From NCBI RefSeq assembly GCF_021611515.1, contig NZ_CP090960.1, positions 1,240,001 through 1,304,000 on the forward strand: a DNA stretch of 64,000 nt, written 5' to 3'. The DNA comes from Mariluticola halotolerans (GTDB lineage: Bacteria; Pseudomonadota; Alphaproteobacteria; Rhizobiales; Devosiaceae). Positions within the stretch are counted from its first letter, which is position 1. The number at the start of each line of letters is the position of its first letter. The notes beneath the pieces are model-generated. The model saw only the letters and a program-made list of their open reading frames with translations. It searched no databases and was not told the DNA's origin. Shown one piece after another: positions 15,979 to 31,195 of the stretch. The position numbers were made by a program, and so were the translations under genes.

Positions 15979-16027
15979 GGGGGAAGGATGCAGCCGTCAA
16001 AATTGACCAGACCACCGAGCGGCTGGA

Positions 16028-17587: not shown

Positions 17588-17615
17588 TCACCTTTTAAAA
17601 ACAGACCTTAGAACA

Positions 17616-17643
17616 ACTATAATTTATTCATTACATCCGTAAA
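17616..17643 (-). promoter_or_regulatory. Candidate promoter for the reverse transcriptase gene
   Basis: On the minus strand TTTACG (-35-like, four matches) and TATAGT (-10-like, five matches) are separated by 16 bases. Transcription would begin about 20 bases upstream of the TTG start. Confidence 0.3.
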
Positions 17644-17799
17644 TTTCTTGACATCTTTCCGACCATTGTCAACATCGAAACTAATTGTTTCTGGCCATAA
17701 TGTCGGCACTCACGATGCAGCAACACATGCACATCTACGAATGAGCACGATAAAATTGGTTAGGACGTTAGTCGAGTAATCAGGCGGCCCATTTAACCA

Positions 17800-17831
17800 G
17801 CCGTCCAGTTTTTTTGGATTTCGTGGACGGC
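17800..17831. repeat. Stem-loop with T-run in the loop
   Basis: GCCGTCCA and TGGACGGC pair perfectly (8 bp) around a 16-base loop that contains seven consecutive T. It could be an RNA structural element for the RT locus or simply a regulatory hairpin; it overlaps the small frame described next. Confidence 0.4.
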
Positions 17832-17962
17832 AGACTTAGCATCTTGAACCCTTTTCTAATAACGACGTGGGCTCAATACCTGTTGTGCCAAGAGCAACGC
17901 ATGACCATCGACGATGCCGATATCGCGGCGGCTATCAAGGGCGAAGTAGCGACCAGTGTCTA
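17824..17962 (+). CDS. Possible small ORF overlapping the DUF4238 start
   Basis: A GTG-started frame of about 45 residues (or 20 residues from the ATG at 17903, ending IKGEVATSV). Its TAG stop overlaps the DUF4238 GTG start in the sequence GTGTCTAG. Upstream purines are weak in both cases. The frame stays open back to 17772. It matches nothing I recognise and may be a leader for translational coupling, the tail of a decayed gene, or chance. Confidence 0.25.
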
Positions 17963-18876
17963 GGTCCGGCAGTCATAAAACACAGCATTACATTCCACGT
18001 AGCTATTTGGCCGCTTGGTGCGACCCCGACACGCCCGCGCGCATGCAGCCCTATGTGTGGACGTTTGATCCGTATGGTGGCGCGGGAAGAAAGCGTGCGC
18101 CCAAGAACCTCTTTACTGAGACGGATATCTACACAATCCAGAGACCCGATGGGGCCAGAGATTTACAGATTGAGCATGAACTGTCGAGACTAGAGAAAGG
18201 CCTGAAAACTCTTGTCACGGATTTTGTCGCCCAATACCGTCAGTTGCCGCTTCACCGACAATCTAGGTTGATTGAGTTCATCGCGGCGATGCACGCTCGA
18301 ACGCCCCATGCTCGCGAGATCCAAAGTATGCTGTGGCAAGATGAGTTGAATGCTATCGAGCAGCAAGAACGCGATGTCGTGACACCGAGCGCCTCAAAGC
18401 CTGAGCGAACGGCTGAAGGCCCGCCTCTGCCCCCAAGCCCTCAAAAGAGGCTAGACGGCCTTCGAACAGCTCTAGCAACACCCATGAAGTTCTTGCTGCC
18501 GGGGGCAATAGCCGATGTGCTGCCCATGCTAAGGCAGATGACGATGACCATCATGTGCACCGACGAACCGAGCTTCATAACCTCAGACAGTCCGGTGACA
18601 TGGGTTGATCCAACAGTGCCCAGGGACAAATATCTGACTCACAAGAAATCACTGACGGACAAAGGCATCGAAGTCGTGATGCCGCTGTCGCCGCGGCACT
18701 CGATCATACTGCATCATCCAGCGACGCCATTTGTGAAGCCGGTGAGATATGTGAGTGCCTGCACGTCAACTACGGCTGCACTTAACCGTCGCACAGCTCA
18801 TTTTGCGGACAAGGCCATTGTGTCTTGGAAAGACGGGTTTGATCCGGCGTGGCTACTAGCACCTCCTCCTCGATGA
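17956..18876 (+). CDS. DUF4238 domain-containing protein
   Basis: A 306-residue protein with the DUF4238 N-terminal signature HKTQHYIPRSYLAAW and a downstream FITSDSPV motif. The fold and function are unknown. The GTG start lacks a clear ribosome site, but moving to the next ATG (18043) would remove the conserved QHYIPRSYL segment, so coupling to the small upstream frame is the best explanation. It is divergent from the defence RT and converges on the WYL regulator with a 16-base gap. A defence role is suggested only by position. Confidence 0.7.
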   Translation: MSRSGSHKTQHYIPRSYLAAWCDPDTPARMQPYVWTFDPYGGAGRKRAPKNLFTETDIYTIQRPDGARDLQIEHELSRLEKGLKTLVTDFVAQYRQLPLHRQSRLIEFIAAMHARTPHAREIQSMLWQDELNAIEQQERDVVTPSASKPERTAEGPPLPPSPQKRLDGLRTALATPMKFLLPGAIADVLPMLRQMTMTIMCTDEPSFITSDSPVTWVDPTVPRDKYLTHKKSLTDKGIEVVMPLSPRHSIILHHPATPFVKPVRYVSACTSTTAALNRRTAHFADKAIVSWKDGFDPAWLLAPPPR

Positions 18877-18892
18877 GGTGGCACTACCAGCC

Positions 18893-19615
18893 TTAATTGC
18901 GCCCCGTATCCTGCACCGGGCGGACGGTGTCGTCGAAGGGGACGGTTCGGCGGCGGAAGGGGGTGTTTTCGAGATATTCGGGGGCGGTTATGCGGTCCAT
19001 GCGGAAATGGCGGAAATCGTCGCGGGACGGGTCCCAGGCGACCAGATACCACAGGGGGGGCAGGATCAGCATGGCTTGTGGTTCGACATGGCGGTGGGTG
19101 ACCGCCCCTTTTGCGTCGCGATAGCGAAAGCGCAGGTGCTGGCGCTGGAGAAAGGCCCGTTCGAACGCCGGCAGGAGGGCCGGTTCCATCGTGCCCAGAT
19201 CGGATATATCGACCTGAGGGGCGAGCGTGCCGACATAGAGGCAATCCAGAAAGCGGCGCAAATCGCGGACCTTGTCGTTTGGCAGGGCTTTTTCGATTTT
19301 GGCGAGCCCGGCATCGGCGAGGCCTGAAAATGGCAGGTTGCCGGCGGCGCGCATGCTGGCCACGCTGATGAGCAGCGCAAAGATTTCGGCCACGGAGAGG
19401 CGCGCTGTGGTTTGCACAGACTGCGGATCGAGATAGAGCCCGCCGCCCCGGCCCGGCTCTGAATGAATGACAAAACCTTCATCGCGCAGGGCGGCAATGT
19501 CGCGCAGGATTGTGCGCCGGGATGCGCCGACATCCTGCGCTATTTCGGCAATGGTTGCGGTGCCCTGGCGGCGCAGGCTGCGCACGATGGCATCTTGGCG
19601 GCGGCGAATGTTCAT
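18893..19615 (-). CDS. YafY-type HTH regulator with WYL domain
   Basis: Residues at the N terminus (RRQDAIVRSLRRQGTATIAEIAQDVGASRRTILRDI) are a DeoR-like HTH. The C-terminal half is a WYL ligand-sensing domain (LRFRYRDAKGAVTHRHVEPQAML...WYLVAWD). The frame is open to 19657, but starting at ATG 19613-19615 keeps the 19-base palindrome at 19637-19655 outside the gene. It is divergent from the epoxide hydrolase and probably controls it. WYL regulators often border defence loci, but here the operator argues for control of the hydrolase. Confidence 0.8.
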   Translation of the reverse strand: MNIRRRQDAIVRSLRRQGTATIAEIAQDVGASRRTILRDIAALRDEGFVIHSEPGRGGGLYLDPQSVQTTARLSVAEIFALLISVASMRAAGNLPFSGLADAGLAKIEKALPNDKVRDLRRFLDCLYVGTLAPQVDISDLGTMEPALLPAFERAFLQRQHLRFRYRDAKGAVTHRHVEPQAMLILPPLWYLVAWDPSRDDFRHFRMDRITAPEYLENTPFRRRTVPFDDTVRPVQDTGRN

Positions 19616-19636
19616 CTGCACAGGCTCGCATACAAA

Positions 19637-19655
19637 GGTGCCAGAATTTGGCACC
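19637..19655. promoter_or_regulatory. Perfect palindromic operator between WYL regulator and hydrolase
   Basis: GGTGCCA and TGGCACC form a perfect 7-base inverted repeat around GAATT, placed 22 bases before the regulator's ATG and 42 bases before the hydrolase. A single site between divergent regulator and target is the usual layout for joint control. Confidence 0.6.
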
Positions 19656-19696
19656 ATTTGATTTTAGACAGCGGCTGACCCATTCAACAAGGAGAA

Positions 19697-20644
19697 ATGC
19701 CCATGTTCAGCCCTGCCGATTTTCCCGTGCCCACGCTTGTTGCCGTGAACGGCGTGGAGCTTGAAGTTTTTGAAGCCGGACAAGAGAATGCCGGCAACCC
19801 GATTGTTTTGTGCCACGGGTGGCCCGAGCATGCCTTTTCGTGGCGGCACCAGATGCCCGCGCTGGCCGCGGCGGGCTATCATGTGATCGTGCCGAACCAG
19901 CGGGGGTTTGGCCAATCATCCTGCCCGGCGGAGGTGAGCGCTTATGACATTGCGCATTTGACGGGGGATCTGGCCGGGCTGCTGGATCATTATGGCTATG
20001 AGGACGCGGTTTTTGCGGGCCATGACTGGGGGGCCAATGTGGTTTGGGGGCTGGGGCTGTTGCATGCCCAACGGGTGAAAAAGATCATCAACCTGGCCCT
20101 GCCCTATCAGGCGCGCACGCCCACGCCATGGATTGAATTCATGGAGGCGGTTTTTGGCAGCGACAATTATTTCGTGCATTTCAACCGGCAGCCGGGGGTG
20201 GCCGATGCGGTGCTGGATGCGAACACGGCGCGGTTTTTGCGTAATTTGTTCCGTCGCGACCTGCCCCCCGTGCCGCCCGCGCCCGGCATGATGATGATCA
20301 ACCTCGCCCTGGCAGAAACGCCCGCTGGTGCGCCGGTGATGGGGGAAGATGAACTGGCGGTTTTAATCTCGGCATTCGAGAAGACGGGGTTTACGGGCAG
20401 TATCAACTGGTACCGGAATCTGGATCGTAACTGGCACATTCTGGCGGATGTGGACCCGGTGATCAGAAAGCCGGCGCTGATGATTTATGGCGAGCGGGAC
20501 ATGATCCCGAAATCGGAAAACCTGACGGATTTCGTGCCGAATGTTGATGTGATCAGCCTTGATTGCGGCCACTGGATTCAGCAGGAAAAGCCGGACGAGA
20601 CGACAGACGCGATGTTGCGCTGGCTGGCGGGGCCGGCGGCTTAG
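19697..20644 (+). CDS. Alpha/beta-fold epoxide hydrolase-like enzyme
   Basis: A 315-residue hydrolase. HGWPEHAFSW supplies the oxyanion-hole motif of epoxide hydrolases, GHDWGANVV the Asp nucleophile, and DCGHWIQQE the catalytic His; the acidic partner is probably in the segment GERDMIP. A cap domain lies between. An aaggaga site precedes ATG 19697; ATG 19703 is also possible. It is likely regulated by the divergent WYL protein. Dehalogenase activity is the main alternative, though the HGWPE motif favours epoxide hydrolysis. Confidence 0.82.
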   Translation: MPMFSPADFPVPTLVAVNGVELEVFEAGQENAGNPIVLCHGWPEHAFSWRHQMPALAAAGYHVIVPNQRGFGQSSCPAEVSAYDIAHLTGDLAGLLDHYGYEDAVFAGHDWGANVVWGLGLLHAQRVKKIINLALPYQARTPTPWIEFMEAVFGSDNYFVHFNRQPGVADAVLDANTARFLRNLFRRDLPPVPPAPGMMMINLALAETPAGAPVMGEDELAVLISAFEKTGFTGSINWYRNLDRNWHILADVDPVIRKPALMIYGERDMIPKSENLTDFVPNVDVISLDCGHWIQQEKPDETTDAMLRWLAGPAA

Positions 20645-20665
20645 GAAACGCGCCTTTCCCGGCCC

Positions 20666-21442
20666 CTAGCCGCGTGACACGTCGACCGTCTGGTTGGCGA
20701 GTTGGGCCCATTGGGTGGTTTCGAGGAAGGCCACGTCGCCGGCGTCGCGGCCGGCGGCGATGACGACAAGGCCATCGGCGGCACTCATGCCTGTTGCGTC
20801 GACGAAATGCCAGGCATCCGCCAGCCAGACCTGCGCCACGGCGTGGAAATCGGGCGGGGTGACGCCGAGGCCATAGACCGATGTGTAGCGCGCGGGAATG
20901 CCGGCGGCGCGGGCGAGACTGCACATCAGGTGCGCGAAATCGCGGCACACCCCTTCGCGGGAGATGAATGTATCAATGGCGCCGGTTGCAGCGCCCGAAC
21001 TGCCCGGGACATAGGCGATTTCAGCATTGACCCAATCGCGCATGGCGGCGATTTTTGCGCCGCCCTCCAGATCGCCGAACTGTTTGGCAACGATATTGCC
21101 GAACAGATCCGCCTCGCAATAGCGCGAGGCGCGCAGATAGGTGGCCACCTCACCGGACAGCGCATGAAGAGGCGTGGCCTTCAGGTTTTGCAGCGGGATG
21201 GCGGGGCGGGTGACATCCACCTGGGCGCGGTAGCGCAGGTTCAGCCGCTGGCTTTGCACATGCGCCCAGACCCGCTGGCCCAGCCCGCCCTCGCCGCTGA
21301 CCCGGCTCAGCGTGGCATTTTCGATATCGAGCTGGCTCTCGATAATGGTCTGGCCATCGGTTCTGGCGGCTTCAATGGTCAACAGCGCCGGCTCTTCGCC
21401 GTTAAGCTGATATGCCATGGTGACATCGATAGCGATGCGCAT
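20666..21442 (-). CDS. Transglutaminase-like (SLT) family protein
   Basis: About 258 residues: an N-terminal beta domain, then a transglutaminase core with catalytic Cys in REGVCRDFAHLM, His in PPDFHAVAQVWL and Asp in WHFVDATGM. The ATG at 21440-21442 is preferred to an upstream extension because MRIAIDVTMAY is the natural start of this family. It converges with the hydrolase (21-base gap). Probably a cytoplasmic cysteine protease or amidase; substrate unknown. Confidence 0.8.
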   Translation of the reverse strand: MRIAIDVTMAYQLNGEEPALLTIEAARTDGQTIIESQLDIENATLSRVSGEGGLGQRVWAHVQSQRLNLRYRAQVDVTRPAIPLQNLKATPLHALSGEVATYLRASRYCEADLFGNIVAKQFGDLEGGAKIAAMRDWVNAEIAYVPGSSGAATGAIDTFISREGVCRDFAHLMCSLARAAGIPARYTSVYGLGVTPPDFHAVAQVWLADAWHFVDATGMSAADGLVVIAAGRDAGDVAFLETTQWAQLANQTVDVSRG

Positions 21443-21780
21443 GCGTTGGTCTCTTTTGTTTTGGGGTGGCGGGACGGCAACGCGATGGGGCACGCGGCTT
21501 CACCCAATCTAGGGGAAAAGCTGGGCGGCTTAAAGGCGGATTTCGGGGTGGGGTGTGTGGGATGCCGGGGCGAGTCCCGGCACAAGGACTTAAAAGACGC
21601 TATTCTGATGAAAAGCGGACATTCGATGGTTTGAGTTTGGTATCTGGGCAAACTCCAGCACCTAAAATCAGCCGGCATTGATAGTTTTTGTGGCAAAATA
21701 AATATAACTCATATTCCGTTATAGACTTCAGAATATTCCGATTATATTTTTATGATACTTAAATTCCCGGGCGGCCAGCA
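21443..21780. other. 338-base gap before the OLD-family nuclease gene
   Basis: The first part is GC-rich and carries a short palindrome (TGCCGGG/CCCGGCA at 21563-21582) of the dispersed intergenic type. From about 21650 the base composition turns sharply AT-rich, marking the left edge of the nuclease-helicase locus. No gene is supported here. Confidence 0.5.
21711..21746. promoter_or_regulatory. Direct repeats in the nuclease-helicase promoter region
   Basis: ATATTCCGTTATA (21711-21723) and ATATTCCGATTATA (21733-21746) are near-identical direct repeats 22 bases apart, two helical turns. A -10-like TATGAT follows at 21751. They may bind a regulator on one face of the DNA and control the downstream pair. 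Confidence 0.4.
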
Positions 21781-24006
21781 ATGAAAATTGTTTCTTTTCA
21801 TATCAAAAACTACCGAAGACTCTTCGATATAGATTTGGCTCTATATGATAAAAAGACAATTCTAGTCGGCGCAAATAATAGCGGAAAGACCTCGTGCATT
21901 GGCGCCCTTCACACGTTTCTAGCAAGGCCGGAAAACCTTCGGATTCGTGATGTTTCCAAGCAGCATTGGAAGTCAATTTCCGACATCGGGGCACGTCTTG
22001 AGGTCAAGGAAATTACCACCGAGGACCTTGTGACACTAAGCGAAAGGTTGGCCGGTTTGCTTCCTTGTTTGGATTTGGTCATCACAGCCGATGCCTCTGA
22101 GGCGTACAAGGCTCGAGACATACTCCCTCATCTTGGCTGGCGCGGCGGGCCACTAGGTGTTCGGATCGCTTACGAGCCTGAAAACATGGCTGCTTTAGCC
22201 GCAGACTTCAAGCAAGCAAGAAGCGTTGTTGCAGGCCACAGCGGTGCATCGCTCTGGCCAAAGAACCTATTCGAATTCTTGGAGAAAGGCAGAAATTTCA
22301 ACAAATATATAAACTTGAAGCACTATATTCTCGGCGTAGAAGCTCACTATGCCAGAGACGATGAAAAACCTTCAGAAGCAGAAGAGAAGGCGGAGATCTT
22401 AGAAGCGGTTAAAGACGCCGGACAAGTAGAAGGTCAGGCCCCGCAACTTCAGCCTTTGCCTTCTGGCGCATTGAAGAAACTGATCCGCGTGGACGTGATC
22501 TCGGAGCAGCGCGGACTTGGCATCGAAGACAGCTCCGACCCAAGGGGACCATATTCCGAAAAACAGCAGTTGAATAAACTGCTACGTGACTACTATGAGC
22601 GCTTTCTGAATCCTGAGGACTTTCCCGAAGCCGGCGATCTTGAAGTGCTGGCAAAGCAGCAGGAGATGGAGCGAAGTTTTACCAGGCGTCTTGAGCAGCA
22701 ATTTAGAGCCCCGCTCGATGAGCTGGAACAAATGGGGTATCCGGGCATTGGCGGCAATCCAAGCGTAGAAATTGCAGCCAAAGTTAGTGGGGCAGATGCT
22801 CTGCAGAGGCCCTCGTCAGTACGTTATCGCTTTGACAAAGACCAAGATGACAGCCTTCCGGAAAGCTACCTTGGGTTGGGATATCAGAACCTGATATATC
22901 TTACTTTTCGGCTGCTTGGATTTCGCGAAAAATGGATGCGAACGGGCAAGTCAGTATCGTCTGATGGCGAGTTGAACGCGCAAATCGAACCCATTCATCT
23001 GGTGTTGGTGGAAGAGCCAGAGGTGAATTTGCACGCCCAGGTGCAACGTGTGTTCATCGCAAAAGCCTACGAAACATTACGGAAACACCCGATGCTAGGG
23101 GCGAATACTGAGTTCCAAACCCAACTCGTAGTTAGCACCCACTCTAGCCACATCGTCAATGATGTTGATTTCAAAGACCTTCGCTACTTCCGGCGGAGTT
23201 CTGCCAATGACGAAATCAAGATGGATCACTCGTCGGTCGAGAATATGTCAGACCTATTCGCTGACGAAAAAAACGAGCTAAAATTTGTCAGCAAGCACCT
23301 TAAACTGACCCACTGTGACATTTTCTTTGCCGATGGGGTAATTTTCGTCGAGGGCCAAGCCGAACGCCTGCTGGTTCCGGAATTTATTGCCAGAAATTTT
23401 AAAGACCTCTCGAAACGCTATTTGTCTATACTGGAAGTTAGTGGCGCTCACACCCACAAGTACAAAGCGCTTGTCGAAAAACTAGGAATAATAACACTTA
23501 TCATAACCGACTTGGACACGTTAGACACCGGCGGCAAAAAATGCGCCCCTAAATTGCAACAAAGCCAAATTACCAATAATTACACACTCATCAATTGGCA
23601 CCCTAAGCATTCTTCAGTCGATGATTTGGTGAATCTTAGCAAAGAAGATTGCGACACCAAAAAAGGTAAAACTTCGGCATTATTCGTTGCTTTCCAGAAA
23701 AAAATTAAAATTAACGGAACTGAGGTACTTAGCCGAACTTTTGAAGACTCGCTCATTCTCGCAAATTTTGACAAACCGTATTTCCAAAATATCCCGCAGA
23801 TAAAGGAGGCGAAAGAAGCATTCAACAGCAATACCAAACCACTCGAAATTTCACTGTTTAACTATGTGCAGAAACTGACGAAGGGCGATTTCGCTTTTAG
23901 CTGCCTTTTCTACATCTCAGAAGATGCCGAGAACTCCTTCAAAACCCCGCCTTATATAAGCGAAGGACTTGAGTGGTTGCAGACTCAATTGTCCCCTGGT
24001 TTGTGA
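21781..24006 (+). CDS. OLD-family ATP-dependent nuclease, GajA-like
   Basis: A 741-residue protein with an SMC/ABC-type ATPase and a TOPRIM nuclease. Walker A is GANNSGKT (30-37), the ABC signature-like ESYLGLGYQN (361-370), Walker B HLVLVEEPE (406-413) and the H-loop STHSSH (452-457). TOPRIM shows IFVEGQAE (Glu524) and ITDLD (Asp577, Asp579). This is a class 2 OLD nuclease; with the adjacent UvrD helicase it matches the Gabija arrangement, where GajA cuts DNA when nucleotides are depleted. It is clearly longer than the roughly 580-residue GajA first described, with extra sequence in the ATPase insertion. The gene is AT-richer than the surrounding genome. Confidence 0.88.
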   Translation: MKIVSFHIKNYRRLFDIDLALYDKKTILVGANNSGKTSCIGALHTFLARPENLRIRDVSKQHWKSISDIGARLEVKEITTEDLVTLSERLAGLLPCLDLVITADASEAYKARDILPHLGWRGGPLGVRIAYEPENMAALAADFKQARSVVAGHSGASLWPKNLFEFLEKGRNFNKYINLKHYILGVEAHYARDDEKPSEAEEKAEILEAVKDAGQVEGQAPQLQPLPSGALKKLIRVDVISEQRGLGIEDSSDPRGPYSEKQQLNKLLRDYYERFLNPEDFPEAGDLEVLAKQQEMERSFTRRLEQQFRAPLDELEQMGYPGIGGNPSVEIAAKVSGADALQRPSSVRYRFDKDQDDSLPESYLGLGYQNLIYLTFRLLGFREKWMRTGKSVSSDGELNAQIEPIHLVLVEEPEVNLHAQVQRVFIAKAYETLRKHPMLGANTEFQTQLVVSTHSSHIVNDVDFKDLRYFRRSSANDEIKMDHSSVENMSDLFADEKNELKFVSKHLKLTHCDIFFADGVIFVEGQAERLLVPEFIARNFKDLSKRYLSILEVSGAHTHKYKALVEKLGIITLIITDLDTLDTGGKKCAPKLQQSQITNNYTLINWHPKHSSVDDLVNLSKEDCDTKKGKTSALFVAFQKKIKINGTEVLSRTFEDSLILANFDKPYFQNIPQIKEAKEAFNSNTKPLEISLFNYVQKLTKGDFAFSCLFYISEDAENSFKTPPYISEGLEWLQTQLSPGL

Positions 24007-24016
24007 GTAAAACGCC

Positions 24017-25984
24017 ATGACCCATGACGGATTCTTGGCGGCGACAAAGCCGATAGATCATGACAAATCTGTCGATGACGGCATCCGCAGTTGCCTACAA
24101 TTGGCTTCGGGTAAGAGCTTTATTACGTTTGCTGGTGCCGGTTCCGGGAAGACCTACTCGCTCGAGAAGGCTCTGGATTATCTAAAGGGGCAATACGCAG
24201 CAGATTTTTCAAAACTCGGAAAACAGGTTGCCGTCGTCACATTCACCAATAATGCGGCCAATGAGATCATAGATCGCGTTGCGCGAGACCCAATTTTTGC
24301 AATCTCCACCATACACAGCTTTTGTTGGCTCTCCATCGCTGGCTTCAACGAAGATATTCGGAAATGGTACTTGGCGACAATACCGGATGAAATTAGCGAC
24401 TTGGAAGGTAAAGAACATCGTGGGCGCGCAGGTGCGGCATCGGAAGCAAGGAAACGAAATATTGCCCGGCTTACCGACAAGATGGAATGGTTAGTGCAGC
24501 CACGCAGTTTCATTTATGATCCCAATGGGGTCAACTCAGCGCAAAATGCGCTCTCGCACTCAGATGTGCTGAAGATTTTCGCGCATTTTCTGACTACTAA
24601 ACCGATGATGGGTGAAATTCTTGCCAACAAGTATCCGTTTATCTTTGTTGATGAAAGCCAAGACACCGACAGATCCGTTATCAATTCACTGTTTGATCTG
24701 CAAAAAAAGCAAGCCAACACGACAGTAATTGGCTTGTTCGGCGACACGATGCAGCGCATTTTCTTTGGTGGTGAGCCACAACTTGGCATATCCCTGCCGG
24801 AAAACTGGACAGAGTTTGATAAACACCTGAACCATCGCTCCGGGCGCCGTATTGTTGGGTTGGGAAACACCATCCGCAATGACGACGACTGTAGAATTCA
24901 ATATGCCAAAGATGGCGCTGAGGACGGCTTAGTACGCTTTTTCCTAATTCCTCACGGAATCCAAAACAAGGATGAGATTGAGCAAAGCATTCGGGAAAAG
25001 ATGGCCGAATTGGACTGTGACCCCGCTTGGAATTCCCCCAGAACCGACGAGACGGCGGTTTTGCTACTTGAGCATAAAATGGCCAGTCGCCGCCTCGGCT
25101 TTGAACACCTCATTGAAGCGCTGTCCATATCAGTCCGAATCAAAGATCATATTTTTGATGGTGACAGTTCGGACCTGAACTACTTCTCGAATATCATCTT
25201 GCCCTTGGTGGAAGCTGGCGAAGCCAAAGATGAGTTCCAAGTGATGACCATCCTGCGGTCGAATAGTTCGCCACTATTGGAGGAATCCACATTCTCTGAG
25301 GGCGTAGGTGATCCTTTGCTCGCCGCGCGCACGGCGGAGCGAGCATTTCGATCTAAAATGCTGAAGAACAATGTTACGTTTCAGGAAGTGTTGGAGGTTA
25401 TCGCCGAACACAACCTTTTGCCCATACCAACCAAACTTAGATCATTCGTATCATCGCAAGAGGATGTTGACCCGGGAACTGGTCCCAAATTCGACTTTAG
25501 CGCTCTCGAAGCGGACACCACTATTTCCTCTGATGCGACGCAAAAGGATGATGAGATTGACGCATGGGCAGCGGCGCTTAAAACGCCTTTTCAACAAGTT
25601 AGGGGTTATCGGGACTACGTCAATGACAATTCGATTTACCGAACGCATCAAGGCGTTAAGGGGAACGAATTCGAGCGAGTTATGGTAATCATGGATGATG
25701 AGGAAGCTGGCGGCTTCTTGTTCTCTTACGAACAGTATTTCGGCGCAAAAGATCCGTCTCCAAGCACCATCGCGAAGATCAAAGCCGGTGAAGAAACGGG
25801 GTTGGATCGAACCAGACGGCTGTTCTATGTGACCTCTACACGAGCTAAAAGTAGTCTTGCTCATGTGATCTATTCAGCCGACGTGGATAAGGTGCGGCAG
25901 AACCTTCTAACGCGAAAGTTAGCAAAAAAAGAGGAGATTTTGGTTTTCCCTTTTGCCAAGATTAGCGACAAAGAACCAACGTGA
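24017..25984 (+). CDS. UvrD/Rep-like superfamily 1 helicase, GajB-like
   Basis: A 655-residue SF1A helicase. Motif I FAGAGSGKT is at 38-46, Ia AVVTFTNNAANEI at 72-84, II VDESQDT at 211-217, III GLFGDTMQRI at 239-248, V THQGVKGNEFERV at 543-555 and VI RLFYVTSTRAK at 601-611. All catalytic motifs are intact. It starts 10 bases after the nuclease stop, so the two are one operon. It is longer than the roughly 490-residue GajB originally described, as the nuclease also is. Probable role is to sense or process phage DNA ends with the nuclease. Confidence 0.88.
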   Translation: MTHDGFLAATKPIDHDKSVDDGIRSCLQLASGKSFITFAGAGSGKTYSLEKALDYLKGQYAADFSKLGKQVAVVTFTNNAANEIIDRVARDPIFAISTIHSFCWLSIAGFNEDIRKWYLATIPDEISDLEGKEHRGRAGAASEARKRNIARLTDKMEWLVQPRSFIYDPNGVNSAQNALSHSDVLKIFAHFLTTKPMMGEILANKYPFIFVDESQDTDRSVINSLFDLQKKQANTTVIGLFGDTMQRIFFGGEPQLGISLPENWTEFDKHLNHRSGRRIVGLGNTIRNDDDCRIQYAKDGAEDGLVRFFLIPHGIQNKDEIEQSIREKMAELDCDPAWNSPRTDETAVLLLEHKMASRRLGFEHLIEALSISVRIKDHIFDGDSSDLNYFSNIILPLVEAGEAKDEFQVMTILRSNSSPLLEESTFSEGVGDPLLAARTAERAFRSKMLKNNVTFQEVLEVIAEHNLLPIPTKLRSFVSSQEDVDPGTGPKFDFSALEADTTISSDATQKDDEIDAWAAALKTPFQQVRGYRDYVNDNSIYRTHQGVKGNEFERVMVIMDDEEAGGFLFSYEQYFGAKDPSPSTIAKIKAGEETGLDRTRRLFYVTSTRAKSSLAHVIYSADVDKVRQNLLTRKLAKKEEILVFPFAKISDKEPT

Positions 25985-26067
25985 ACCATCATTGTTTTTT
26001 CTGGATTAGAACGTCCTAGTCCCGTGCCGTACATTCGAGCAACTTGCCCCGCTTTTAGTACAACCCC

Positions 26068-27069
26068 TCACACATACCCACCCATCAACCGCTCCACCTC
26101 TTCAGCTGACCCCAGTGCAAGGGGGACGCGTTGGTGGAGGGATTTGGGGGTGATGGTGTTGAGGGGGGCTTTGCCGGCTATGGCTTTGCCGCCCGCGGCT
26201 TCCACCAGCATGGCCATGGGGATGGCCTCGTAGAGGAGGCGGAGTTTGCCGTTGGCGCCGCCGGGGGTTTGGAGGGCGGGGTAGATGAAGATGCCGCCGC
26301 GTACGAACAGGCGGTGCACATCGGCGACCATGGAGCCGGCCCAGCGCATGTTGAAGGGTTTACCGCGCGGGCCGGTTTCGCCTGCGACCAGCGCATCAAT
26401 ATATGCTGTGACGGCCGGTTCCCAATGGCGGCGGTGGGCCATGTTGATGGCGAATTCGGAAGCCTTGCGGGCAATGGTGATATTGTCGCGCACCAGCACG
26501 AACTCGCCGTTTGCCGCATCTTCAGCAAACATGGCGACGGTTTTGCCGAGGGTGAGGACCAGCAAGGTGGCCGGGCCATAGAGCACGTAGCCGGCAGCGC
26601 GCTGGGCGTTTGTGGCGGCGAGCACGGCGGCCTCTGTGACCGGGCGGGCGGCAGAACTGGTGGCCAGAACCGAGAAGATGGTGCCGATGGCGCTGTTTGT
26701 TTCGATGTTTGAGGACCCATCGAGCGGATCGAGGCAGACGACCAGCCCTGCCCCGGCACCGGCATTGGGGTTCTGGATGACGTCTTCAATCTCTTCGGAG
26801 ACGATGGCGGCGACATGGGGTGATGCGCTTAGAGCCGCGACGCTGATATCGTTGGAAATGACATCGAGCAATTTCTGGTCTTCGCCCTGCACATTGACGG
26901 CATTGGCGGCACCTGTCTGGCCCAGAAGCGGGGCGGTGCGGATGGTTTTGGCGATTTTGAAGGCGGCATCGGCCAGCGCCTCAAGCGCGGAGACCAGGGC
27001 CGGATCAGTTTTTGCCTGATCCAGCCAATTGCCAAGCGTTATGCCGTTTTTATCCGCCTGCACACTCAT
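26068..27069 (-). CDS. fbp: Fructose-1,6-bisphosphatase class I
   Basis: About 333 residues. Metal and substrate motifs are present: VSEEIEDV, CLDPLDGSSNIE, NMRWAGSMVADVHRL and GKLRLLYEAIPMAMLVE. It removes the C1 phosphate in gluconeogenesis. The frame is open upstream to 27222, but the start MSVQADKNGITL at 27067-27069 fits the family; the extra residues overlap the aldolase gene. It is the last gene of the pckA-fba-fbp series. Confidence 0.92.
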   Translation of the reverse strand: MSVQADKNGITLGNWLDQAKTDPALVSALEALADAAFKIAKTIRTAPLLGQTGAANAVNVQGEDQKLLDVISNDISVAALSASPHVAAIVSEEIEDVIQNPNAGAGAGLVVCLDPLDGSSNIETNSAIGTIFSVLATSSAARPVTEAAVLAATNAQRAAGYVLYGPATLLVLTLGKTVAMFAEDAANGEFVLVRDNITIARKASEFAINMAHRRHWEPAVTAYIDALVAGETGPRGKPFNMRWAGSMVADVHRLFVRGGIFIYPALQTPGGANGKLRLLYEAIPMAMLVEAAGGKAIAGKAPLNTITPKSLHQRVPLALGSAEEVERLMGGYV

Positions 27070-27094
27070 CCCCTGTTCCTGGTTTGCGCCGTTG

Positions 27095-28159
27095 TCAGGC
27101 GACTTTAGTGTTGAACAGGCCGGCGGCATAGCGATCTGCCATGGCGTGCAGCGTGGAGGGGCGGATGCGGCTGGCCATGCCGGCGGCACCGAAACGCTCG
27201 AAGCGCTCAAGGCAGAGGGCAATGGTGCGCTCGCGGCCCGGCTTGAGAATGGCGCGCAGATCGAAGGAGGAGCGGTTCTCGTCGAGGAATTTGCGGATGG
27301 AACCTGTCATCGCCATGCGGATATCGGTGTCGATATTGACCTTGCGGACGCCGTGGCGGATGCCGCGCTCCACCTCTTCCAGCGGGACGCCGAATGTGCC
27401 GGGGATCTCGCCGCCATGGGCATTGATGAGATCCTGCAAATCCTGGGGCACGGTGGAGGCCCCGTGCATGACCAGATGGGTGGCGGGCAGACGGGCGTGG
27501 ATGGCCTCGATCACTTCCATGGCGAGAATATCGCCATCTGGGCGGCGCGAGAACTTGTAGGCACCATGCGAAGTGCCGACAGCGACGGCGAGCGCGTCCA
27601 CACCGGTGGCACGGACGAATGCTTCGGCTTCGGCAGGATCGGTGAGCAATTGCTTCTTCTCGAGCTTGCCTTCAAAGCCGTGCCCGTCTTCTTTTTCGCC
27701 CTCGCCTGTTTCCAGAGAACCCAGCACGCCGATTTCGCCTTCTACGGAGACACCGCGCGCATGGGCCTGTTCAACAACAGAGGCCGTTACTTCGACATTG
27801 TAATCGAAATCGGACGGCGTTTTTGCGTCGGCCATCAGCGAGCCATCCATCATCACCGAGGAAAAGCCGTTTTCCATGGCGGAGAGACAGGTGCTCAACT
27901 CATTGCCGTGATCAAGATGCACACAGACCGGAATATGCGGGTAACGCTCAATAGCGGCCTGGAACATGTGTTTGAGAAAGACATCATCAACATAGGAACG
28001 GGCACTGCGGCTGGCCTGCACCAGAACCGGGCTGCCGGTTCTGTCAGCTGCAATCATCACGGCCTGAAGGGTTTCCAGATTGGTGATGTTGAAAGCGGGC
28101 ATGCCGTAACCGTGTTCAGCAGCGTGATCGAGAAGCTGGCGCAGGGTGATCAAAGCCAT
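27095..28159 (-). CDS. fba: Class II fructose-bisphosphate aldolase (Calvin-cycle type subfamily)
   Basis: A 354-residue zinc aldolase: CVHLDHGN, MMDGS, EGEIGVLGS, VAVGTSHGAYK and VMHGAST supply the zinc ligands and base, and KVNIDTDIRMA the phosphate site. It joins DHAP and G3P in gluconeogenesis. It follows pckA by about 96 bases with a strong hairpin between, and precedes fbp by 25 bases. The length and GFSSVMMDGSLM region place it with the CbbA-like group; no RuBisCO is in the window. Confidence 0.92.
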   Translation of the reverse strand: MALITLRQLLDHAAEHGYGMPAFNITNLETLQAVMIAADRTGSPVLVQASRSARSYVDDVFLKHMFQAAIERYPHIPVCVHLDHGNELSTCLSAMENGFSSVMMDGSLMADAKTPSDFDYNVEVTASVVEQAHARGVSVEGEIGVLGSLETGEGEKEDGHGFEGKLEKKQLLTDPAEAEAFVRATGVDALAVAVGTSHGAYKFSRRPDGDILAMEVIEAIHARLPATHLVMHGASTVPQDLQDLINAHGGEIPGTFGVPLEEVERGIRHGVRKVNIDTDIRMAMTGSIRKFLDENRSSFDLRAILKPGRERTIALCLERFERFGAAGMASRIRPSTLHAMADRYAAGLFNTKVA

Positions 28160-28221
28160 GGTGCGTCCTTTACAATGAAATCAGCGGGCAGCGGCGCAAA
28201 CGCGCCGCGGGCATAACGATT

Positions 28222-28246
28222 GGCGGGCGCTTTGGTTGCGCCCGCC
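28222..28246. terminator. Strong hairpin downstream of pckA
   Basis: GGCGGGCGC and GCGCCCGCC pair over 9 bp around a 7-base loop, 9 bases past the pckA stop. There is no U-run on the pckA strand, so it is probably an mRNA 3'-end stabiliser or partial terminator before fba. Confidence 0.5.
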
Positions 28247-28255
28247 TTTATGGGA

Positions 28256-29854
28256 TCAGGCCGCTTTTGTGCGGGTGGCGCGGACCGAGGTGAGCGCACC
28301 GGCAGCGGGGCCGAGCTTTTGGAAATTATCCTCGAACAGCTGCAGCAAACGGTCTGCCTGGGCATCATAGGCCCCGGCATCGCTCCAGGTTTCGACGGGG
28401 TTGAGGATCTTGTCTTCAACGCCTTCGACATGGAGGGGCACTTCGAAATCGAAATGCGGATCGCGCCGGAATTCGCCCTCGTTCAACTCACCGGCCAAAG
28501 CTGAATCGAGCAGGCGGCGGGTGGTGGACAGGGGCATGCGGTGGCCGGTGCCGTAGGCGCCGCCGGTCCAGCCGGTGTTCAACAGCCAGCAATTGGTGTC
28601 GCCCTCGGACAGGCGCTTGGCCAGCAGCTTGCCATATTCAGCCGGATGACGGGCCATGAAGGGCGCGCCGAAACAGGCGGAGAATGTGGCCTGCGGCTCG
28701 GTGACGCCGCGCTCGGTGCCGGCAACTTTTGCGGTGTAGCCGGACAGGAAGTAGTAAATCACCTGCTCGACATTGAGCCGGGCGATGGGCGGGAGGACGC
28801 CAAAGGCATCGGCAGTGAGCAGGACGACATTGCGCGGCGCGGGGGCAACCCCCTCCTCCACCCGGTTGGGGATGGCGGTTAGCGGGTAGGCAATGCGCGT
28901 GTTCTCGGTGGCCGAGAGATCGGCATAATCGGGCTCGCCGGTTTTCGGATCGAGCACGACATTTTCGAGCACTGAGCCGAACTGACGGGCAGCCTCGAAA
29001 ATCTCGGGCTCGCCCTTTTCGGTGAGATTGGCGGCCTTGGCATAGCACCCACCTTCCAGATTGAAGACGCCGGTGGGGCTCCAGCCATGTTCGTCATCGC
29101 CGACAAGGGCGCGGCCCGGTTCGGTGGACAGGGTGGTTTTGCCGGTGCCCGAGAGGCCGAAGAACAGCGTTGTGTCGCCATTGGCGGCGAGATTGGCCGA
29201 GCAATGCATAGGCAGGATATCAGCGTCCGGCGCATGGTAGTTGAACAGCGAGAAGACCGATTTCTTCATCTCGCCGGCATAGGCCGTGCCGCAGATCAGG
29301 ATGATGTTGCGGGTCAGATCGAGCGCGATGCAGGTGGTGGTTTTGGTGCCGTGACGGGCCGGATCGGCCTCGAAATTGGGCATGTGCACCATGGTGACAT
29401 TGGCCTCAAAGCCCTTGAGGTCAGCTTCTGCGGGGCGAATGAGAAGGTTGCGGATGAACAGCGCGTGCCAGGCGTTTTCGGTGAAAACATCGACACTGTA
29501 GCGCACGGCCGGATCTGCCCCGGCAAACAGCTGCTGCTGGAAGATCGACTTGCCGGCAGCATAATCGAGCATATCGGCAAGGAGGAGGTCGAACTTGGCG
29601 CTGTCCATCCTGTTGGTGTTGTCCCACCAGACCGTATCCTGCGTCGTCTGGTCTTCGACAATGTATTTGTCGCTGGGTGACCGGCCGGTGAACTTGCCGG
29701 TATTGGCGACAATGGCGTTTTGCGGGGTGGTTTTGATGGCGGCATCGCGCATCGCATGGGTCACCAATGGGCGGGTGACCTCGTTGAGGCGGAGCGTTTT
29801 TGCATTGGTGGTGACAGCGATGGCGACATCGCGGTTAAGCAACTGAGCAGTCAT
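28256..29854 (-). CDS. pckA: Phosphoenolpyruvate carboxykinase (ATP)
   Basis: A 532-residue cytoplasmic enzyme that makes PEP from oxaloacetate. P-loop GLSGTGKTTLS, LVGDDEHGWSP, CGTAYAGEMKKSVFSL and MHCSANL are diagnostic. The start MTAQLLNRDVAIAV is supported by family length. Upstream lie a small frame, a hairpin and two palindromic operators, and then a LacI-type gene comparable to pckR of Sinorhizobium, so control by that regulator is likely. Confidence 0.95.
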   Translation of the reverse strand: MTAQLLNRDVAIAVTTNAKTLRLNEVTRPLVTHAMRDAAIKTTPQNAIVANTGKFTGRSPSDKYIVEDQTTQDTVWWDNTNRMDSAKFDLLLADMLDYAAGKSIFQQQLFAGADPAVRYSVDVFTENAWHALFIRNLLIRPAEADLKGFEANVTMVHMPNFEADPARHGTKTTTCIALDLTRNIILICGTAYAGEMKKSVFSLFNYHAPDADILPMHCSANLAANGDTTLFFGLSGTGKTTLSTEPGRALVGDDEHGWSPTGVFNLEGGCYAKAANLTEKGEPEIFEAARQFGSVLENVVLDPKTGEPDYADLSATENTRIAYPLTAIPNRVEEGVAPAPRNVVLLTADAFGVLPPIARLNVEQVIYYFLSGYTAKVAGTERGVTEPQATFSACFGAPFMARHPAEYGKLLAKRLSEGDTNCWLLNTGWTGGAYGTGHRMPLSTTRRLLDSALAGELNEGEFRRDPHFDFEVPLHVEGVEDKILNPVETWSDAGAYDAQADRLLQLFEDNFQKLGPAAGALTSVRATRTKAA

Positions 29855-29910
29855 AAGAATTTACCTGAATTGGATGAGTAACAGACGCTGGCGCGCCGGG
29901 AGAAAAACGG

Positions 29911-30009
29911 TTAGCGCCAGGAAGACGCGCGACAGGCGCGCACATCCGACGCGGTGATATATGAATACCAAAGCCCAGCACCAAAAAGCGGCGTGTTGTG
30001 CTTGTTCAT
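29911..30009 (-). CDS. Small ORF in the pckA leader (32 residues)
   Basis: Runs from an ATG with a strong aggggac ribosome site five bases upstream (MNKHNTPLFGAGLWY...) to TAA, ending CRASSWR. Its last codons form one arm of a hairpin with sequence just downstream (TGGCGC/GCGCCA, 29891-29918 region), 56 bases before the pckA start. The arrangement resembles a leader peptide for translational or attenuation control. I do not recognise the peptide; it could also be a conserved small protein. Confidence 0.4.
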   Translation of the reverse strand: MNKHNTPLFGAGLWYSYITASDVRACRASSWR

Positions 30010-30055
30010 AATCGTCCCCTTTTTCTGCGCATCCAAAAACGGCTTACGCTTCTCC

Positions 30056-30083
30056 GGTTCCCTGCACCTCGGCCAAGGGAACC
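30056..30083 (-). other. Leader hairpin upstream of the small ORF
   Basis: GGTTCCCT and AGGGAACC form a perfect 8-bp stem around a 12-base loop between the operators and the small frame. It would be in the 5' leader if transcription starts near the operators, and may shield or stabilise the mRNA. Confidence 0.5.
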
Positions 30084-30124
30084 TTGCATGCGCATGCATT
30101 AGACAGTTTTGCATACGCATGCAA
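30084..30124. promoter_or_regulatory. Two LacI-type palindromic operators upstream of pckA
   Basis: TGCATGCGCATGCA (30085-30098) is a perfect palindrome. TTGCATACGCATGCAA (30109-30124) matches its own complement at 7 of 8 positions per half. Both have the central CG typical of LacI/GalR operators and their centres are 25 bases apart. On the minus strand TTGCAT and TAATGC with a 17-base spacer overlap them, a possible promoter that the regulator would block. Presumed target of the adjacent LacI protein. Confidence 0.65.
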
Positions 30125-30133
30125 GAGCCGATT

Positions 30134-31195
30134 TTATTGTTGCCAGATTTTTTTGCCGTCAGCTTCAATGATGCCGGTGGATGGCAGGCGGGCGGAGCCG
30201 CGCACGATCAGCTGTCCCCGCACCTCACGGCGCTGGGCACGCCGCCCCGGTTCGGCAATCATGGTGTCGACGATTTTGATCGCCTCTTCCACCAATGCGG
30301 CGGCGGGCTGGGAGAAAGTGGTCAGGTCATAACCGGAATGGGCAGCTTCGGGCACATCGTCGAAACCGACAATGGAGAGATCCTGGGGCACCCTGAGCTT
30401 GTATTCGCGCCGGGCGACATCGGACACGGCAAAAGCCATATAGTCTGAGGCGCAGAAAATGGCGTCGGGCGGGGTTGGCCCTTCCAAAAGCTTGCGGGCG
30501 GCGGCGGCGGCGCCCTCGAAGGTGTAATTGCCGAAAGCGACCTCAACCTCATGGCCACGGGCCTTGAGGTAATTGGTGAAGGCATCGCGCCGGGTGCGGC
30601 CGGTGCTGGAGGTTTCGGTGCCGCCGAGAAAAGCGAACTGCTTGTGGCCACCGGCCTCGAGAAAGGCGGCAACCATCTCCCCTGCCCGCTGGTTCTCGCC
30701 CCTGACGGTGGAAATGCCGGGGAGTTTTGATTCGCGGTTGATCTGGACGATGGGCACGCCCGCCTTCTGGCATTGCAGGGCCAGTTCCAGCGAAGCGGTG
30801 GTTGCTGTCATGACAAGGGCATCGACCTGATAGGACAGCACCCGCTCGAGCGCCGGATCGGCATCCTGATTGGGCGGCGTGGTGAAGAGGAGAATGTGGC
30901 GGCCCGTATCGCGCAAACGGTCGGAGAGTTCCTTGACGACCTGTGCATAAAACGGGTTTTCGAGATAGGAAATGGCCAGGGCGACAATGTTGGAGCGCCT
31001 TGTGGCCAGGGACCGGGCCATCAGATTCGGCTGATAGCCGAGGCTCTGGGCGGCGAGCAGGATTTTTTTACGGGTCGCTTCCGCAACACTGGCACCGGGC
31101 GTGAAGGCGCGGGATACAGCGGATTGCGACACACCAGCCAGTTTGGCTACATCGCTTTCGGTGGGCGCGCGGCGGGCGCTTTCCTTTTTAGTCAA
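30134..31195 (-). CDS. LacI-family transcriptional regulator, PckR-like
   Basis: A 353-residue regulator. The N-terminal HTH reads SDVAKLAGVSQSAVSRAFTP and the hinge helix NLMARSLATRRS. The remainder is a periplasmic-binding-protein-like effector domain (FCASDYMAFAVSD, SIVGFDD). The position upstream of pckA, fba and fbp matches the role known for PckR in Sinorhizobium meliloti, a LacI regulator of gluconeogenic and glycolytic genes. In this window it is on the same strand as pckA and its operators lie just after its stop. The identity is inferred from context. Confidence 0.8.
   Translation of the reverse strand: MTKKESARRAPTESDVAKLAGVSQSAVSRAFTPGASVAEATRKKILLAAQSLGYQPNLMARSLATRRSNIVALAISYLENPFYAQVVKELSDRLRDTGRHILLFTTPPNQDADPALERVLSYQVDALVMTATTASLELALQCQKAGVPIVQINRESKLPGISTVRGENQRAGEMVAAFLEAGGHKQFAFLGGTETSSTGRTRRDAFTNYLKARGHEVEVAFGNYTFEGAAAAARKLLEGPTPPDAIFCASDYMAFAVSDVARREYKLRVPQDLSIVGFDDVPEAAHSGYDLTTFSQPAAALVEEAIKIVDTMIAEPGRRAQRREVRGQLIVRGSARLPSTGIIEADGKKIWQQ

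What the first reader, a model, noticed from the sequence alone, without database searches (positions are those of the whole stretch)
21781..25984. Oversized Gabija-like nuclease-helicase pair
A class 2 OLD nuclease and a UvrD-like helicase, 10 bases apart, match the Gabija layout. Both are about 150 residues longer than the founding GajA and GajB. Catalytic motifs are intact. This may be a separate branch, since OLD-UvrD pairs outside Gabija exist.
Basis: partly seen in the sequence, partly recalled or inferred. Interest (0 to 1): 0.55.

Follow-up and report, generated by a model that had tools for sequence, protein, structure and literature searches.

The report
Ordinary long-branch Gabija defence operon
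Two neighbouring genes encode a DNA-cutting enzyme and a helicase-like partner that match the well-known Gabija anti-virus system of bacteria; they are longer than the first-studied example, but dozens of measured relatives share that size, so this is a normal member of a large, little-studied branch.

Summary
Window 21781-24006 encodes a 741-aa OLD nuclease (ABC ATPase + Toprim); after 10 bases, 24017-25984 encodes a 655-aa UvrD-like helicase. They exceed B. cereus GajA (578) and GajB (494) by 163 and 161 residues; catalytic residues are intact. 'Oversized' holds only against that founding pair: the best PADLOC profiles, GajA and GajB of 736 and 625 positions, match almost end to end (778 and 715 bits), and complete relatives measured are 716-801 and 610-653 aa. 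The extra GajA length is spread over ATPase lobes and loops; no extra domain was found. The helicase adjoins GajA in 93 of 95 scored relatives; the other two stop at a contig end. The two proteins diverged together (r = 0.97) and no third gene recurs. The predicted GajA fold matches B. cereus GajA best among the PDB chains compared. Trees place the pair in a well-supported long branch apart from the other Gabija proteins sampled, but inside what PADLOC calls Gabija: the 'separate branch' is real as a subclade; 'outside Gabija' is not supported. New member of a known kind. Defence, assembly and substrate were not tested. A DRT-type reverse transcriptase (UG20) lies 4.2 kb away on another low-GC segment.

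The parts
21781..24006 (+). gajA: class 2 OLD nuclease, 741 aa, split ABC ATPase (Walker A 30-37, EEPE 411-414, H454) and C-terminal Toprim (E524, E528, D577, D579, E655, K701)
   Evidence: PADLOC PDLC00093 GajA 778.5 bits, profile positions 1-723 of 736; Pfam AAA_15 and OLD-like_TOPRIM; AlphaFold2 pLDDT 85.2, best structural match B. cereus GajA 8x5i_D Z 19.6, 508 residues aligned; catalytic columns 50 of 50
24017..25984 (+). gajB: UvrD/PcrA/Rep-like SF1 helicase, 655 aa, motif I AGAGSGKT (39-46), DESQD box (212-216), motif VI (600-610)
   Evidence: PADLOC PDLC00111 GajB 714.9 bits, profile positions 5-623 of 625; Pfam UvrD-helicase; AlphaFold2 pLDDT 88.5, best structural match D. radiodurans UvrD 4c2t_A Z 26.1; 13 of 14 checked motif columns 51 of 51
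24007..24016 (+). 10-base intergenic gap, consistent with one operon
   Evidence: sequence; start and stop positions listed for relatives are likewise close or overlapping
21494..21780 (.). upstream low-GC intergenic stretch that would carry the promoter; one weak sigma-70-like match at 21727-21756, no better than chance
   Evidence: composition; 2 promoter-like sites found in 21450-26150 against a mean of 4.1 in shuffles

Best explanation
This is a complete two-gene Gabija anti-phage operon of the long GajA/GajB branch. Most likely GajA assembles through its ATPase domain into an oligomer that holds the Toprim nuclease in check, and GajB docks on it as an SF1 motor or nucleotide sensor. When phage DNA presents a suitable substrate, such as free ends not occupied by the host's RecBCD/AddAB machinery, or when nucleotides run low, the complex cuts or blocks that DNA. 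Shown here: gene content, order and domains, active-site residues, co-divergence of the two proteins, fold match of GajA to B. cereus GajA, and low GC that suggests acquisition by transfer. Inferred from studied Gabija systems: oligomeric assembly, trigger, substrate and protection of the cell.
For: PADLOC GajA and GajB profiles matched almost end to end. The helicase is next to GajA in 93 of 95 scored relatives and in the other two GajA runs to a contig end. Mantel r = 0.97 between GajA and GajB distances over 35 pairs, 0 of 999 permutations as high. Same two-branch split in GajA and GajB trees. Toprim spacing E524-E528-D577-D579 equals B. cereus E379-E383-D432-D434. B. cereus GajA is the best structural match (Z 19.6). 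No third recurrent gene: the largest flanking family occurs in 8 of 95 loci and looks by eye like an integrase. GC is 0.47-0.48 against 0.60-0.64 for the four neighbouring genes between 19697 and 28159, and the five closest relatives are spread over Gamma- and Alphaproteobacteria at 61-62% identity, which indicates transfer. A pair of this branch in a filamentous Pseudomonas phage record is annotated as Gabija. The host encodes AddA (1071 bits, cut-off 861); AddB was not sought.
Against: No defence assay exists for this pair, and I found no assay of a system shown to lie on this branch. B. cereus GajA and GajB are very distant from it: 31 and 33 bits in single-sequence search, and B. cereus GajA sits on a tree branch of 4.79 changes per column. 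Interface residues of the B. cereus complex were not compared. No GajB structure is among the 50 entries shown for the GajB model, which matches UvrD, Rep and PcrA best, so its role may differ from that of the inactive B. cereus GajB. A published OLD tree found class 2 nested within class 1 (PMC12796447, passage), so the class border is soft.
Confidence: 0.88

Rival explanations
1. The long branch is a separate nuclease-helicase system that shares ancestry with B. cereus-type Gabija but works differently, for example with a GajB that really unwinds DNA and feeds single strands to GajA.
For: Strong split from the other branch in both trees (100/99; 99). GajB keeps the checked SF1 motif residues and matches full UvrD, Rep and PcrA structures at Z 22-26. 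B. cereus GajB showed no helicase activity and lacks UvrD elements (PMC10681800, passages). No Q-motif glutamine column in 51 long-branch GajBs, against 7 of 11 in the other branch.
Against: Same gene order, active site and GajA fold as Gabija. B. cereus GajB also lacks the Q motif (PMC10822852, passage). The branch carries Gabija labels in PADLOC and in a deposited phage record.
Confidence: 0.2
2. [quoted passage not shown]
For: Schiltz et al. 2019 proposed a repair or replication role from the helicase association (PMC6755086, passage). An archaeal OLD relative acts in the cell cycle (PMC12796447, abstract start and passages).
Against: Patchy distribution: 8 of 385 genomes of the class and 16 of 398 of the phylum at E <= 1e-60, own genome included in each; of 60 other genomes sampled around the host only one has a strong match, two more have weak ones. 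Presence on plasmids and phages. Integrase, recombinase or restriction genes annotated near several relatives and near other-branch pairs. Low GC here.
Confidence: 0.05
3. A decayed, non-functional Gabija.
For: Some relatives have a broken partner (short helicase frames in L090, L119 and L131), and one other-branch pair has an IS256 gene between its genes (L193).
Against: Both frames are full length, with every checked catalytic residue kept.
Confidence: 0.04

Closest known systems
Long-branch Gabija, PADLOC profiles PDLC00093/PDLC00095 (GajA) and PDLC00111/PDLC00143 (GajB)
   Same: Near full-length match, same lengths, same order. Nearest: Pseudoalteromonas sp. XMcav2-N, Vibrio sp. Y2-5, Oceanospirillaceae MAG SP177, Halocynthiibacter sp. 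and Kangiella sp. at 61-62% identity.
   Different: No difference in kind found.
Gabija of Bacillus cereus VD045 (GajA 578 aa, GajB 494 aa)
   Same: Gene order, OLD nuclease plus SF1 helicase, Toprim residues E/E/DxD and their spacing, ATPase-Toprim fold over the full chain.
   Different: 163 and 161 aa longer; very low sequence similarity (31 and 33 bits). The extra GajA length lies between Walker A and the EEPE motif (83 + 39 aa), between EEPE and the Toprim Glu (22 aa) and after DxD (18 aa).
BpOLD and XccOLD class 2 OLD nucleases
   Same: Class 2 Toprim domain.
   Different: They match the other Gabija branch far better: 177 and 165 bits with profile A4, against 54 and 46 bits with the long-branch profile A2.
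Class 1 OLD (T. scotoductus OLD), retron Eco8 nuclease (class 3), PARIS AriA (its filing as class 4 is recalled)
   Same: ABC ATPase, and Toprim in class 1 and 3.
   Different: No adjacent UvrD helicase, or other partners; NCBIfam Eco8 score 53.7 bits against a cut-off of 250.

Membership tests
Gabija | GajA: N-terminal ABC ATPase plus C-terminal Toprim of the OLD family | tested here: met
   PADLOC GajA 2.2e-234; Pfam AAA_15 142.7 bits and OLD-like_TOPRIM 70.2 bits, both above cut-off
Gabija | Complete Toprim active site (E, E, DxD, second acidic site, Lys) | tested here: met
   E524, E528, D577, D579, E655, K701 identical in 50 of 50 rows. E/E/DxD match B. cereus E379, E383, D432, D434. E655 and K701 are set against the B. 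cereus second acidic site and K541 by alignment only; K541 was outside the B. cereus letters I had
Gabija | GajB: UvrD/PcrA/Rep-like SF1 helicase encoded directly downstream on the same strand | tested here: met
   10-base gap; PADLOC GajB 2.4e-215; pairing kept in 93 of 95 scored relatives
Gabija | GajA folds like the solved B. cereus GajA | tested here: met
   AlphaFold2 model; 8x5i_D Z 19.6, rmsd 5.2, 508 aligned of 557; 8sm3_A Z 18.4; retron Eco8 17.0 and TsOLD 16.9 follow. Foldseek TM-score by query length is only 0.44
Gabija | GajB folds like the solved B. cereus GajB | tested here: inconclusive
   No GajB chain among the 50 entries shown; UvrD, Rep and PcrA lead at Z 22-26. This does not exclude it.
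Gabija | 4:4 GajA-GajB complex | not testable with these tools
   single-chain predictions only
Gabija | Protection against phages needing both genes | not testable with these tools
   needs an experiment
Class 1 OLD | Stand-alone gene without helicase | tested here: not met
   helicase adjacent; the tree separates the window from the two stand-alone rows L165 and L184, both on very long branches
Retron Eco8 (class 3 OLD) | Effector over the NCBIfam cut-off, with a retron reverse transcriptase beside it | tested here: not met
   53.7 bits against 250. The reverse transcriptase 4.2 kb away matches DRT-type RT_UG20 best (662 bits); its NCBIfam matches, retron St85 among them, are all below cut-off.

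The most novel reading that the evidence does not exclude
The long branch is a mechanistically distinct Gabija subtype. Its GajB, unlike the inactive B. cereus GajB, is a working UvrD-like motor with no conserved Q motif and so perhaps relaxed nucleotide choice, and its enlarged GajA ATPase lobes form a different docking or DNA-end-sensing platform.
Probability: 0.2. Interest if true: 0.45.

Novelty: new member of a known kind. Interest (0 to 1): 0.2.

Why it matters
Gabija is reported in more than 15% of sequenced prokaryote genomes (PMC10781630, abstract start). In the PDB searches here the full-length GajA and the GajB chains are length variants of what appears to be the one B. cereus pair, besides Toprim domains of BpOLD and XccOLD. 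This locus belongs to a branch with GajA proteins of mostly 716-801 aa, seen here in at least five phyla and on plasmids and phages, for which I found no solved structure. Conclusions drawn from B. cereus, such as an inactive GajB or nucleotide gating, may not hold for it. The relatives at 61-67% identity offer an easy comparative set.

Tried and rejected
A single-sequence scan of genome contigs gave 28 pattern matches and no relative; the alignment-based scan worked. I looked for a third conserved gene among 1053 flanking ORFs of at least 80 codons in the 95 loci (80 of which have 2 kb or more upstream): the largest family is in 8 of 95, the next in 6, 6, 5, 5, 5 and 5; by eye they look like integrases, recombinases, restriction subunits and others. 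Smaller genes would be missed. I tried to show an empty insertion site: the flanking transglutaminase-like and fructose-bisphosphatase genes lie far apart in the nearest genome (G001, 3.24 Mb and 0.90 Mb), so none could be shown. The retron Eco8 family search found 0 of 150 genomes and its control rang nowhere, so it says nothing. The class 1 Old search found 1 of 120 genomes at E <= 1e-80, so class 1 is thinly sampled. In some searches the 14 control genomes gave no match either; the host itself is the positive. No Rfam family at gathering threshold in 16000-31000. Only short two-copy repeats in 21200-26400. Promoter and terminator scans gave fewer sites than shuffles. A profile comparison of long GajB with other-branch GajB aligned 250 columns of the N-terminal part only. 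No GajB structure is in the structural list shown; this absence proves nothing. NCBIfam RecB stayed below its cut-off in the host.

Counts: the 84 GajA and 76 GajB proteins behind the length ranges are the complete ones with a detected helicase out of the 95 loci L051-L145; loci with cut, broken or undetected frames were dropped. Searches fetched 100 loci; L146-L150 (weak viral matches) are outside the 95. Of all 145 rows, 137 have a helicase; the other 8 are L092, L140, L187 and L188 (gene at or near a contig end), L147 (34-bit match), L184, and L165 and L186 (one gene fetched twice). Those rows hold other repeats too (for example L032 and L089, L039 and L057). Trees used subsets that I chose: 55, 37 and 35 rows. 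One search missed helicases on minus-strand loci because of a coordinate slip in my script; one search corrects this. In the B. cereus chain residue 513 reads E where the paper passage lists D513.
Full report
What is there. Two plus-strand genes, 21781-24006 (741 aa) and 24017-25984 (655 aa), are separated by 10 bases. The first carries an ABC ATPase domain and an OLD-type Toprim domain, the second an SF1 UvrD-like helicase. PADLOC's best profiles are GajA PDLC00093 (778.5 bits, positions 1-723 of 736) and GajB PDLC00111 (714.9 bits, 5-623 of 625); the second-best are also GajA and GajB. A DNA search of its genome (G000, 3.45 Mb, 2 contigs) finds the pair once.

Catalytic residues. In GajA, K36 (Walker A), E411/E412, H454 and the Toprim set E524, E528, G555, D577, D579, E655 and K701 are identical in 50 of 50 aligned rows. 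In GajB 13 of 14 checked SF1 residues are identical in 51 of 51 rows, and E551 in 47 of 51. The distances from the first Toprim Glu to the second Glu and to the DxD (4 and 53 residues) equal those of B. cereus GajA (E379, E383, D432, D434, listed in PMC10822852, passage; letters seen). E655 and K701 are set against the B. cereus second acidic site and K541 by alignment only. Schiltz et al. 2019 tie full class 2 activity to two metals and a conserved lysine (PMC6755086, passage).

Is it oversized? Against B. cereus GajA (578 aa) and GajB (494 aa) it is 163 and 161 aa longer. Against its own relatives it is not. In 84 complete GajA proteins from the 95 loci scored out the range is 716-801 aa (median 749.5); in 76 complete GajB proteins it is 610-653 aa (median 628). 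Other-branch pairs from plasmids are also longer than B. cereus: GajA 592-714 aa in rows L151-L155, L159-L162, L193 and L194, with GajB of 585 aa or more (starts set by script or annotation). B. cereus is the shortest seen here. Landmark spacing places the extra GajA length at 83 aa between Walker A and a central strand, 39 aa from there to EEPE, 22 aa from EEPE to the Toprim Glu, 0 aa from Glu to DxD and 18 aa after it. The central strand was matched by eye. Three short stretches inside the first interval and just after it have pLDDT under 50 (189-194, 216-221, 248-257). Pfam shows no extra domain.

Structure. AlphaFold2 models of GajA (pLDDT 85.2, pTM 0.85) and GajB (88.5, 0.86) were built from alignments of 50 and 51 sequences. 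For GajA, B. cereus GajA leads by Foldseek (8x5i_D, E 5.8e-18, but TM-score by query length only 0.44) and by VIA-align (8x5i_D Z 19.6, rmsd 5.2, 508 aligned; 8sm3_A Z 18.4), ahead of retron Eco8 (17.0) and TsOLD (16.9). These margins are modest. GajB matches UvrD, Rep and PcrA best (Z 26.1, 22.9 and 22.3); no GajB structure is among the rows shown, which proves nothing. B. cereus GajB is reported to lack helicase activity and several UvrD elements (PMC10681800, abstract and passages). No column with a Q-motif glutamine exists in the 51 long-branch GajBs, while 7 of 11 other-branch GajBs have one; B. cereus GajB is also reported to lack the Q motif (PMC10822852).

Family and phylogeny. The helicase is adjacent in 93 of the 95 scored loci; in the other two (L092, L140) GajA runs to the contig end. 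In a few loci the helicase frame is short or broken. The five nearest relatives (61-62% identity by tblastn, up to 67% over the tree columns) come from Pseudoalteromonas, Vibrio, an Oceanospirillaceae MAG, Halocynthiibacter and Kangiella. In a 37-row maximum-likelihood tree the window lies in a 26-row branch separated with support 100/99 from 11 rows that include B. cereus GajA and the rows most similar to BpOLD/XccOLD (similarity). B. cereus GajA has a very long branch and only residues 1-519, so its exact place is unsure. A 55-row tree with two stand-alone OLD proteins gives the same grouping. The GajB tree shows the same split, and GajA/GajB distances over 35 pairs correlate at 0.97 (0 of 999 permutations as high). 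Shared descent of whole operons explains this too, so it shows co-inheritance, not contact. A published OLD tree finds class 2 nested within class 1 (PMC12796447, passage).

Is the branch already called Gabija? Yes in PADLOC, whose first release covered the Doron systems, Gabija among them, and allows several profiles for one protein family (PMC8565338, passages). A filamentous Pseudomonas phage record with a pair of this branch is annotated as Gabija. Akritidou and Thurtle-Schmidt propose that all class 2 OLD proteins are GajA and the reverse (PMC10568477, section headed 3). One paper sorts 18 Gabija systems (14 lactic acid bacteria, 2 B. cereus, 2 E. coli) into different clades (PMC13304284, passages). 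In the library searches I made (listings with the start of abstracts, some papers opened by passage) I saw no description of a long subtype; that is not proof that none exists. The branch of the Gabija from P. aeruginosa PA14 was not determined.

Surroundings. The neighbouring genes at 19697-21493 (alpha/beta hydrolase, transglutaminase-like) and 26068-29854 (fructose-bisphosphatase, aldolase, PEPCK) look chromosomal. GC is 0.47-0.48 in the Gabija genes, against 0.60-0.64 in the four neighbouring genes between 19697 and 28159 and 0.578 in the window. PDLC00093 at E <= 1e-60 is found in 8 of 385 genomes of the class and 16 of 398 of the phylum, the host included in each. Of 60 other genomes near the host one has a strong match (1.4e-52) and two have weak ones. 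This is a patchy, transfer-like pattern. An empty site could not be shown.

Mechanism. By analogy, GajA would be the DNA-cutting core and GajB the motor or nucleotide sensor docked on it. Published triggers differ: nucleotide depletion in B. cereus, and DNA ends not occupied by RecBCD in PA14 (PMC10568477, section headed 3; PMC12407980, one section and passages). The host encodes a clear AddA (1071 bits, cut-off 861), so the second model has a RecBCD-like counterpart here; AddB was not sought. Which trigger applies to this branch is unknown.

Verdict. It is a new member of a known kind with modest interest. The open point is whether the long branch behaves like the structurally solved short pair.

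Noticed in passing
window 16028-17587 (-): 519-aa reverse transcriptase matching PADLOC RT_UG20 (DRT) at 662 bits over nearly its full length, on its own low-GC segment (0.46), 4.2 kb from Gabija: a second likely defence gene.
   Followed up: partly
window 17956-18876 (+): DUF4238 protein (128 bits) divergent from the reverse transcriptase; GC 0.55, between island and host values; no PADLOC match at E <= 1e-5.
   Followed up: no
L158:2315-8219 (Haematobacter massiliensis plasmid pOT1-2): A reverse transcriptase matching PADLOC RT-Protease type XI (616 bits) lies directly upstream of a long-branch GajA-GajB pair. In a single-sequence search of the loci held, this RT found only itself and the window RT found nothing; the RT of L195 is cut there and would be missed.
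   Followed up: partly
L195:5001-12238 (Rhizobium leguminosarum plasmid pR132503): Another annotated reverse transcriptase about 2.7 kb downstream of a long-branch Gabija pair.
   Followed up: no
L193:3149-8107 (Rhizobium sp. BT03 plasmid): An IS256 transposase gene sits between gajA and gajB.
   Followed up: no
L152:6966-7841 and L154:1544-2953: Shedu-type genes adjacent to other-branch Gabija pairs on Priestia and Citrobacter plasmids.
   Followed up: no
L191:3501-7423 (Pseudomonas filamentous phage PfAC02b): An inovirus record of 13.7 kb carries a Gabija pair of 647 and 660 aa that groups with the long branch.
   Followed up: partly
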